This document shows, piece by piece, positions 31,386-33,271 of a stretch of 64,000 nucleotides of DNA. Numbering within the stretch: position 1 is the first letter of the stretch; each line of letters starts with the position of its first letter. Below the pieces are notes generated by a model. It was not told the origin of the DNA and made no database searches. It saw nothing but the letters and a program-made list of their open reading frames with translations. The translations under genes and the position numbers were made by a program. This stretch comes from Brevibacterium marinum (lineage in GTDB: Bacteria > Actinomycetota > Actinomycetes > Actinomycetales > Brevibacteriaceae), in the NCBI RefSeq assembly GCF_011927955.1, contig NZ_JAATJN010000001.1, positions 868,001 to 932,000 on the forward strand, read 5' to 3'.

Positions 31386-31412
31386 ATTCGCAGCCGCCGT
31401 GGTTCTGGATGG
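31386..31412 (-). promoter_or_regulatory. Candidate SigK promoter of the fasciclin gene
   Basis: On the minus strand CCATCC (31412-31407) is followed after 16 nt by CGAAT (31390-31386). From memory, the mycobacterial SigK consensus has CCATCC at -35 and CGAAT at -10. The identical arrangement stands before the sulfite-oxidase-like gene. The leader to the fasciclin start would be about 85 nt. Confidence 0.7.
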
Positions 31413-31518
31413 GTGATCGCGAGAATTTCTTGGAAACTGTTCGACCAAGCCGCCTTGGGCGCAGGCGGTCTGCTCGGCTCGGACATCTCGGCGCAGGCGC
31501 TGTTTTCGACCGGGGAAG

Positions 31519-33237
31519 CTATTCGACGCGGAACTGGATGTGGTGGTGCCCGGTCGCCGAATTGGGAATGGCTTCCCTGCGCTCCGGGGTCTGCACGTTC
31601 CCGTCGCGATCGATCGCACGGACGGTGAGGGTGTGCGACCCGGCATCGACCGTGCTGAAGTCTGCTCTCCACTGCCGCCAGGTGTCGATGTTCACCTCGT
31701 CGGCCAGCTCTGCCTCCGTCCACTGCCCGTCGTCGAGCTTCACATCGACTCGTTCGATCCCGCTTCGCTGCGCCCAGGCGGTGCCGGCGACGACCAGATC
31801 ACCCGCCGGCACCTTCCCCAGCGGTTTCGGAACTTCGATTCTGGACGCGACCAGGATGGGGGCCTTGGCATCCCACCCGCGGTCGGTCCAATAGGCCGTC
31901 TTCTCATCGAAGCGGGTGACCTCGAGTTCCGTGACCCATTTGGTGGCCGAGACGAAGCCGTAGAGTCCGGGGACGACAAGGCGGGCGGGGTACCCGTGCT
32001 CGGGCGGCAGGGGACTGCCGTTCATGCCGACGGCAAGCAGCGCGTTCCGATCGTCTGAGAGTGCTTCGATCGGCGTCGAGGCCGTGAAGCCGTCGAAGGA
32101 ATGGGAGAGCACCATGTCCGCGTCCCTGTGCGGTTTCGCCCGTTGCAGCAGCTCGCTGACGGGGAAGCCCAGCCACGTGGCATTGCCGACGAGGTCACCA
32201 CCGACGGGATTGGAGACGCAGGTGAGCGTGATGTGGTGCTCCTCGAGGGGGAGGTCGAGAAGATCGTCCATCGACAGGGTCACCTCTGAGTCGACCATGC
32301 CGTGGATCCGCAGTGACCATTGCTGCGCATCGATGACCGGGGGAGCGAGGACCGTATCGATGCGGTAGAAGTCCTTTCGGTCGGTGACGAAGGGCGCAAG
32401 GCCCTTCACCTGAGGATGCGCCGAGGCGGGAATCGGGGGTGCTGTTTTCGCGGGCTTCGGCAGCACGAGCTTCGCAACCGCAGCACCGGCGTCCAAGGTC
32501 AGTGAAGCCACGGTCTGTCCGGCGGCCACTGCTGCTGCCCCTGCGGCGCCGATGATCCCTGTGATCGCGAAGAAGCGGCGCCGTGACGGATCTGCGGCAG
32601 GTTTCGCGCTCGATGACGCTCCAACCGGCGACGGGGAATCGGGTGGCGAGGAAGAATCGGGCAGCGACGGGGAATCGATTGTCGACGGTGAATCAGTCGT
32701 CGCCGGGGAATCGGCTGTCGCCGAGGCGCCGGGTCGAGCGACGGCAGGAAAAGTTGAGGCAGCAGCGGTATCCGTTCCGCCGGTATCCGTTCCGGGCGCA
32801 GACGTCGAAGTCGACGAATCGAGGCTGATGAGGACGCGGAAGGTCGCCATGCCGAGAGCGAGGCCGATCAGAGTCGGAAGCACGTCGAGGACCTCGGACT
32901 CGGGGCGGAGGGGGATGACGATGACGGGGACGATCCCGGCCAGGAGCAGGAGCGCTGTGGCCAGCCGGAGGCGACGAGATGCGAGCCATCCGATGAGTCC
33001 CCCGAGCACCAGAGCCCCGAGGCCCGTGGTGAGGACGAGGACGAGCTTGTCATTGTGCCCGAGAAGGTCGATGACCGGTTTGATGAGGCCCGCGGGAGCC
33101 AGCGGAATGATCGTTTGGCCTACGGCCAGCAGAGGGGCGGCCGGTGGCCCGAAGGCTCGGGCGATGAGCTCGGCGGCACCGAACAGGACGAGGGTGGCGA
33201 CGACCCCGGCAAGGGCGGTGCGAAGTGGTCTTCTCAT
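31519..33237 (-). CDS. Membrane-anchored molybdopterin oxidoreductase (sulfite oxidase family)
   Basis: This 572-residue protein has four N-terminal helices, a Ser/Pro/Asp-repeat linker near 140-215, a fifth helix after an RRRFFAITG twin-arginine-like motif, then a sulfite-oxidase fold. The molybdenum-ligating Cys is in HITLTCVSNPVGGDLVGNA, and YPARLVVPGLYGFVSATKWV is the family core. The C-terminal domain is the Mo-co dimerisation type. The catalytic half should lie outside the membrane. It is the first gene of the SigK-linked group, and its ATG lies 7 nt from a SigK-type -10, so it is probably leaderless. Confidence 0.87.
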   Translation of the reverse strand: MRRPLRTALAGVVATLVLFGAAELIARAFGPPAAPLLAVGQTIIPLAPAGLIKPVIDLLGHNDKLVLVLTTGLGALVLGGLIGWLASRRLRLATALLLLAGIVPVIVIPLRPESEVLDVLPTLIGLALGMATFRVLISLDSSTSTSAPGTDTGGTDTAAASTFPAVARPGASATADSPATTDSPSTIDSPSLPDSSSPPDSPSPVGASSSAKPAADPSRRRFFAITGIIGAAGAAAVAAGQTVASLTLDAGAAVAKLVLPKPAKTAPPIPASAHPQVKGLAPFVTDRKDFYRIDTVLAPPVIDAQQWSLRIHGMVDSEVTLSMDDLLDLPLEEHHITLTCVSNPVGGDLVGNATWLGFPVSELLQRAKPHRDADMVLSHSFDGFTASTPIEALSDDRNALLAVGMNGSPLPPEHGYPARLVVPGLYGFVSATKWVTELEVTRFDEKTAYWTDRGWDAKAPILVASRIEVPKPLGKVPAGDLVVAGTAWAQRSGIERVDVKLDDGQWTEAELADEVNIDTWRQWRADFSTVDAGSHTLTVRAIDRDGNVQTPERREAIPNSATGHHHIQFRVE

Positions 33238-33244
33238 GCTCGAT

Positions 33245-33271
33245 ATTCGGAGCAGACACCGATTCGGATGG
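33245..33271 (-). promoter_or_regulatory. Candidate SigK promoter of the sulfite-oxidase-like gene, leaderless
   Basis: On the minus strand CCATCC (33271-33266) is followed after 16 nt by CGAAT (33249-33245). The gene's ATG begins 7 nt further on, placing the transcription start at the start codon. The arrangement is the same as the one before the fasciclin gene, which makes chance unlikely. Confidence 0.72.

What the first reader, a model, noticed from the sequence alone, without database searches (positions are those of the whole stretch)
31386..33271. Two identical-format SigK promoters define a local SigK regulon
CCATCC-N16-CGAAT occurs exactly twice in this stretch on the minus strand: 31412-31386 before the fasciclin lipoprotein and 33271-33245 before the sulfite-oxidase-like gene. 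SigK and RskA are encoded directly downstream. The format matches the mycobacterial SigK consensus as I remember it, and MPT83-like fasciclins are the known targets. It extends the regulon to a membrane molybdo-enzyme, hinting at a redox role.
Basis: partly seen in the sequence, partly recalled or inferred. Interest (0 to 1): 0.7.

Follow-up and report, generated by a model that had tools for sequence, protein, structure and literature searches.

The report
SigK regulon includes leaderless molybdo-enzyme gene
Two matching promoter-like sites sit before a surface-lipoprotein gene and a membrane molybdenum-enzyme gene next to the SigK stress switch of a Brevibacterium, a third sits before a distant membrane-protein gene, and because such sites recur in many other actinobacteria these genes likely form a core set switched on by SigK, with the enzyme's message predicted to begin right at its start codon.

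Summary
In detail: CCATCC-N16-CGAAT occurs exactly twice in the window, both on the minus strand, at the stated places. It is not chance: in 57 genus genomes the extended form CCATCC-N12-GCTSCGAAY occurs in 39 of 39 genomes with sigK and 1 of 18 without (94 sites against 1, reversed control 0). The fasciclin half is already published as an mpt83-sigK-rskA cassette with a SigK site (PMC7509140, passages). The molybdo-enzyme half holds and goes further: 36 of 36 testable genus genes have CGAA(T/C) 7-8 nt before ATG; beyond the genus 20 of 23 such genes lying upstream of sigK have the motif 6-8 nt before a start codon; 14 sampled paralogues have none. A leaderless mRNA is predicted. The regulon is not local: a third conserved site, 428 kb away, precedes a DUF4383 gene (30 of 31 close copies read). 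The redox hint is weak: the redox cysteine pair of M. tuberculosis SigK is absent. No expression was tested, and the key earlier paper (Veyrier 2008) could not be read.

The parts
33245..33271 (-). SigK-type promoter of the molybdo-enzyme gene: CCATCC (33271-33266), N16, CGAAT (33249-33245)
33237..33244 (-). 7-nt gap ATCGAGC plus first base of the ATG; predicted transcription start at or next to the A of ATG (leaderless mRNA, inferred)
31519..33237 (-). molybdo-enzyme (moly), 572 aa: hydrophobic N-terminal part, RRRFF before the last hydrophobic stretch, then Oxidored_molyb domain and Mo-co dimerisation domain
31386..31412 (-). SigK-type promoter of fas (likely of fas-sigK-rskA): CCATCC (31412-31407), N16, CGAAT (31390-31386)
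31294..31385 (-). 92-nt fas leader, its first part (GTACACAGC...) conserved in the genus
30616..31293 (-). fasciclin-domain lipoprotein (lipobox LSGC read by eye), MPT70/MPT83-like
29820..30485 (-). sigK, ECF sigma factor, 221 aa, without the Cys133/183 pair
28891..29823 (-). rskA, anti-sigma factor, 310 aa, overlaps the sigK stop by 4 nt

Best explanation
This is the SigK-RskA cassette of a Brevibacterium, whose SigK likely drives three transcripts from CCATCC-N16-CGAAT promoters: fas-sigK-rskA, a molybdo-enzyme mRNA predicted to be leaderless, and an unlinked DUF4383 membrane-protein gene. SigK is probably held by membrane-bound RskA until a signal outside the membrane frees it (established for the family, inferred here). 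Free SigK would then raise its own operon through the fas promoter (inferred: no site lies between fas and sigK) and place three proteins at the cell surface: an MPT83-type lipoprotein, a membrane-anchored sulfite-oxidase-type enzyme with a twin-arginine motif before its last hydrophobic helix, and a small membrane protein. The 7-8 nt between CGAAT and ATG would put the transcription start at the start codon, so this message would have no ribosome-binding leader. The role is likely defence or repair against oxidants outside the membrane; substrate and signal are unknown.
For: Sites track the sigma factor: 39 of 39 sigK+ genomes against 1 of 18 sigK- (sigK at 1e-30); fas occurs in the same 39 genomes. 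Promoter hexamers fixed, spacer variable. Moly: 36 of 36 testable genus genes with NNATC[CT]-N16-CGAA[TC]-N7/8-ATG; 20 of 23 moly genes upstream of sigK in other genera; 46 of 82453 start codons of the same 80 loci carry a site 6-9 nt in front, reversed pattern 0; 14 of 14 paralogues read lack it. DUF4383: 30 of 31 close copies have CCATCC-N16-CGAAY, 0 of 5 diverged copies; in two genomes of another family it heads DUF4383-fas-sigK-rskA-moly. Fas outside the genus: C[CA]ATCC-N16-CGAA[TCG] in 21 of 23 and 55 of 62, random windows 32 of 1150 and 52 of 3100, reversed 0. Published: SigK sites conserved across Actinobacteria and recognised between species (PMC7509140, passages).
Against: No start site, expression or mutant data. 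The genomes share ancestry, so 39 against 18 are not independent events. L347, L355 and L373 have moly upstream of sigK without the site. Fas lacks the site in 2 of 23 and 7 of 62; 17 of the 40 order-level loci had no fas above my cut-off. Eight sigK+ genus genomes lack DUF4383 at 1e-20. The window SigK scores 173.8 against the curated SigK cut-off of 226. The +1 position is assumed, not measured.
Confidence: 0.78

Rival explanations
1. Another ECF sigma factor of the same genome, not SigK, uses these promoters, and their place beside sigK is incidental.
For: The genome encodes more sigma factors (15 first-look candidates), and ECF promoters can overlap.
Against: The extended site is in 39 of 39 sigK+ and 1 of 18 sigK- genomes; sites sit beside sigK in many other families; the motif is that of published SigK sites (PMC7509140; consensus letters recalled).
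Confidence: 0.08
2. The SigK set is a sulfite-detoxification system: sulfite or a related sulfur compound is the signal, and moly is a sulfite dehydrogenase.
For: Best solved relatives are sulfite dehydrogenases SorT (2xts) and SorA (2blf), above MsrP (1xdq); SoxC, SorA and SorT models score above MsrP; R292, C340, R419 and Y426 are invariant in 20 aligned proteins.
Against: All scores lie far below the curated cut-offs (117 of 420, 104 of 600, 79 of 570); no cytochrome partner was looked for; fasciclin and DUF4383 have no known tie to sulfite.
Confidence: 0.2
3. The set repairs oxidised methionine outside the membrane, like MsrP/MsrQ under ECF16 sigma factors.
For: An ECF sigma factor activates a methionine-rich peptide gene with putative MsrQ/MsrP in Brucella (PMC8315932, passages); MsrP/MsrQ are named as distant relatives of the Sco3746-type proteins (PMC5449189, passages).
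Against: MsrP model 64 of 207 bits, weaker than the sulfite dehydrogenases; no conserved heme-type histidines in the N-terminal part.
Confidence: 0.25
4. The sites are chance matches or shared-ancestry leftovers without function.
For: The bare motif has 14 matches in the genome; 4 of 100 shuffles of the window reach two.
Against: Hexamers stay while spacers change; sites vanish with sigK; the fixed 7-8 nt to ATG recurs in other families.
Confidence: 0.03

Closest known systems
mpt83-sigK-rskA cassette and SigK regulon of mycobacteria (PMC7509140, passages read; it cites Veyrier et al. 2008, which is not held)
   Same: ECF SigK, adjacent membrane RskA, MPT83-type fasciclin lipoprotein with a SigK site in front.
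   Different: A molybdo-enzyme gene with its own close SigK-type site and an unlinked DUF4383 gene join the set here; the Cys133/183 pair of SigK is absent.
Sco3746-type polytopic molybdenum-cofactor proteins (PMC5449189, passages read)
   Same: Hydrophobic N-terminal part, twin arginine directly before the last helix, C-terminal Mo-cofactor domain.
   Different: Sco3746 relatives have conserved histidines in TMD2-4 predicted to bind heme; no such conserved histidine is seen in the genus proteins. No regulation by SigK is mentioned in the passages seen.
ECF16 SigF/BcrS systems with MsrP/MsrQ (PMC8315932, passages read)
   Same: An ECF sigma factor with membrane anti-sigma drives an extracytoplasmic Mo-enzyme of the sulfite-oxidase fold.
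   Different: Another ECF group, a DUF1109/NrsF anti-sigma, a methionine-rich peptide in place of a fasciclin, and MsrP in place of a SorT/SorA-like domain.

Membership tests
SigK-RskA cassette | ECF sigma factor closest to SigK | tested here: inconclusive
   SigK is the best NCBIfam model (173.8 bits) and the best solved chain (4nqw), but below the curated cut-off of 226
SigK-RskA cassette | adjacent RskA-type anti-sigma factor | tested here: met
   RskA_C 84.3 bits, cut-off 29.4; NF052375 115.6, cut-off 100
SigK-RskA cassette | MPT83/MPT70-type fasciclin next to sigK | tested here: met
   PF02469; best solved chain MPT70 1nyo, E 2.3e-59
SigK-RskA cassette | SigK site before the fasciclin gene | tested here: met
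   41 of 41 in the genus
SigK-RskA cassette | Cys133/Cys183 pair (94% of ECF18, 56% of ECF19 in PMC7509140; so not strictly defining) | tested here: not met
   0 of 42 genus sequences covering the positions (44 aligned); 3 of 120 others have Cys at each position
SigK-RskA cassette | SigK activates, RskA modulates the promoters | not testable with these tools
   needs mutants
Sco3746-type Sec-Tat Mo proteins | Mo-cofactor domain PF00174 | tested here: met
   156.2 bits, cut-off 24
Sco3746-type Sec-Tat Mo proteins | twin arginine before the last N-terminal helix | tested here: met
   R219, R220, F222 invariant in 20 of 20; helices judged by eye, no predictor run
Sco3746-type Sec-Tat Mo proteins | heme histidines in TMD2-4 | tested here: not met
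   no conserved histidine before RR in 36 genus proteins
MsrP | NCBIfam MsrP cut-off | tested here: not met
   64.3 of 207
SorA/SorT/SoxC sulfite dehydrogenases | NCBIfam cut-offs | tested here: not met
   103.9 of 600, 78.7 of 570, 117.2 of 420
DUF4383 (unlinked third target) | Pfam gathering score | tested here: met
   154.4 bits, cut-off 27

The most novel reading that the evidence does not exclude
SigK-RskA is the actinobacterial photo-oxidative stress switch: light or singlet oxygen acting at the membrane releases SigK, which builds a surface repair set (MPT83-type fasciclin, leaderless Sec-Tat molybdo-enzyme, DUF4383 protein and, in other families, CcdA/DipZ-like, photolyase-like and FAD-oxidase-like proteins behind the same promoter). 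In Brevibacterium the lost Cys133/183 pair is replaced by a new cysteine quartet in sigma region 2.
Probability: 0.18. Interest if true: 0.8.

Novelty: new variant of a known kind. Interest (0 to 1): 0.55.

Why it matters
MPT70 and MPT83 are major antigens and the known SigK targets, yet the stimuli of SigK-RskA are called obscure in print (PMC9861118, passage). A molybdo-enzyme and a DUF4383 protein tied to SigK across actinobacteria give the regulon a catalytic member that can be assayed in harmless cheese bacteria. A promoter fixed about 7 nt before the start codon in distant families would also be a clean natural case of an ECF sigma factor serving a leaderless transcript.

Tried and rejected
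Short ORF in the fas leader (MKTPSRLSAVEHHC): rejected; its ATG is missing in some genus loci (L048, L053, L054, L069) and its stop moves in others. Fas-leader hairpin: 32 distinct leaders give no consensus fold (energy 0.0), though single leaders fold. Bare motif as genome-wide evidence: too weak (14 matches), replaced by conservation and the extended form. Some genus hits recur with a near-identical spacer (e.g. CCCATCCGCCTGCCCGCGATCAGCGAAT), likely inside one conserved coding sequence; I did not check and did not count them as promoters. A looser own-genome scan (CMATCC-N16-CGAAY) gave 13 matches; the five new ones were not analysed. A strict motif first missed many order-level fas genes (5 of 23); I then loosened it to C[CA]ATCC and CGAA[TCG] after seeing the sequences, so the 21 of 23 and 55 of 62, and the motif form, are fitted after the fact; random-window and reversed controls are given. 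SigK model (pLDDT 79.5, pTM 0.46) gave no coordinates, so cysteine distances were not measured. No structure was predicted for the molybdo-enzyme. Prior-art searches (open-licence papers only); none of the listed titles or the passages I read tie SigK to a molybdo-enzyme or DUF4383. Veyrier 2008 is not held, so priority cannot be judged.

Full report
Observation. The window holds CCATCC-N16-CGAAT exactly twice, at 31412-31386 and 33271-33245, both on the minus strand. The first ends 92 nt before the fasciclin ATG, the second 7 nt before the ATG of a sulfite-oxidase-type gene. sigK and rskA follow fas on the same strand.

Is it chance? Shuffles of the window average 0.22 matches, and 4 of 100 reach two. 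In the 4.22-Mb genome the pattern has 14 matches, so the bare motif is weak. I therefore turned to conservation. SigK matches at 1e-30 occur in 39 of 57 genus genomes; 43 regions were fetched and read with the window. Upstream of fas, 41 of 41 testable genes have C[CAT]ATC[CT]-N16-[CG]GAA[TC], 34 in the strict form. For moly 31 of 36 have it by that script, 25 strict. The five misses are one script artefact (L073, exact motif), three with another first -35 base (L053, L079, L081) and L086 with CGATCT. The spacer varies while the hexamers stay, and the -10 extends to GCT(C/G)CGAAT. The extended pattern CCATCC-N12-GCTSCGAAY occurs in 39 of 39 sigK+ genomes and 1 of 18 sigK- genomes, 94 sites against 1, reversed control 0. 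A looser form, CCCATCC-N16-CGAAY, gives 170 sites in the 39 and 10 in the 18. These genomes share ancestry, so the counts are not independent. In the own genome the extended site occurs four times: fas, moly, DUF4383, and one candidate before a predicted 74-aa secreted protein.

The molybdo-enzyme gene. Of 44 genus loci including the window, 38 have moly near sigK, two of them cut by a contig end. In all 36 others NNATC[CT]-N16-CGAA[TC] is followed by 7 or 8 nt and ATG. Outside the genus I fetched 40 order-level loci (of 63 matching non-genus genomes) and 40 class-level loci (39 genomes, one of them from the same order, out of 135 matching), choosing a spread of families. Moly lies within 7 kb of the sigK match in 36 of these 80. 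In 23 it lies upstream, and 20 of these have C[CA]ATCC-N15..17-CGAA[TCG] ending 6-8 nt before an in-frame start; L347, L355 and L373 do not. In the other 13, where moly lies downstream, only L362 has such a site, and two more (L234, L240) have one 66-68 nt before a start. Across the 80 loci 46 of 82453 start codons have a site 6-9 nt in front, none the reversed pattern. The wider motif form was chosen after seeing sequences. Fourteen moly paralogues away from sigK (of 32 such genes by my reading) have no site in the roughly 2-kb stretch fetched around their 5' end.

A third target. Genus hits with diverged spacers pointed to a small membrane protein. It is DUF4383 (PF14325), at G000:C1:1328894-1329352, its site 428 kb from the moly site. 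Close copies occur in 31 genomes, all sigK+; eight sigK+ genomes lack one at 1e-20. Of 31 close copies read, 30 have CCATCC-N16-CGAAY and one (L165) reads CGGAT; the ATG follows 34-57 nt later, at 37 nt in 17. Five of ten diverged copies were read, three from sigK- genomes; none has a site. In two genomes of one other genus the order is DUF4383-fas-sigK-rskA-moly, with a SigK-type site before DUF4383 and none found before fas. This supports the unlinked gene as a true partner.

Proteins. Among solved structures the fasciclin is closest to MPT70. The molybdo-enzyme has a hydrophobic N-terminal part, RRRFF before the last hydrophobic stretch, and a sulfite-oxidase-type domain; R292, C340, R419 and Y426 are invariant in 20 aligned proteins. 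That these stand for the Mo-ligand Cys and catalytic Arg and Tyr is recalled and read off the alignment. It matches SorT and SorA better than MsrP but passes no curated cut-off. The layout is that of Sco3746-type Sec-Tat proteins (PMC5449189, passages), without their conserved histidines.

Signal. In M. tuberculosis SigK, oxidation of Cys133/Cys183 stabilises the complex with RskA (PMC7509140, passages). None of the 42 genus sequences covering these positions has either cysteine (44 aligned). The genus instead has cysteines in sigma region 2 at window positions 91, 99, 117 and 124 (44, 37, 39 and 42 of 44), where 120 SigK-like sequences of other genera mostly have V, A, A and R. Whether these sense anything is unknown.

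Photo-oxidative reading. Light raises the fasciclin genes mpk83 and mpk70 in M. kansasii, which carry putative SigK sites (PMC9861118, passages). A fasciclin gene (RSP_1409) rises under photo-oxidative stress in Rhodobacter sphaeroides, and R. capsulatus RpoE is closer to SigK than to R. sphaeroides RpoE (PMC7074977, passages). In the 80 loci, SigK-type sites also precede CcdA-like proteins (L230, L236, L238, L249, L254) and, in L368, photolyase-like and FAD-oxidase-like proteins; these names are mine from reading the sequences, no family scan was run. This stays a hypothesis.

Verdict. That moly belongs to the SigK regulon is strongly supported by comparison, not by experiment. The fasciclin part is known. 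The molybdo-enzyme with its close promoter, and DUF4383, were not met as SigK targets in my searches, but the key earlier paper (Veyrier 2008) could not be read.

Noticed in passing
window 29820-30485 (SigK residues 91, 99, 117, 124): Four cysteines in sigma region 2, conserved in the genus (44, 37, 39, 42 of 44) and mostly V, A, A, R elsewhere; in the model they lie on two neighbouring helices, 81-101 and 109-137. A possible new redox or metal site.
   Followed up: partly
G000:C1:1588975-1589001 (L006, L119): Fourth extended SigK-type site of the own genome, before a predicted 74-aa secreted protein; not seen at the same place in relatives.
   Followed up: partly
L126, L128, L132: SigK-type site 41 nt before an SDR-like gene in three genomes of one genus clade, with diverged spacers.
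   Followed up: no
L138, L139, L140: Site 8 nt before the ATG of a 99-aa protein of unknown kind in three genus genomes: another candidate leaderless gene.
   Followed up: no
L352, L359, L361: Site 6-9 nt before the start of an ORF at or overlapping sigK: possible leaderless, self-activated sigK in other families.
   Followed up: no
L225, L237, L239, L134: SigK-type sites before secreted proteins that look like CHRD-domain proteins (my reading).
   Followed up: no
window 31294-31385: The fas leader begins with a conserved GTACACAGC stretch; function unknown, no consensus fold.
   Followed up: partly
window 33362-33862: An OsmC/Ohr-family gene lies divergent to moly and is kept beside it in many genus loci.
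   Followed up: no
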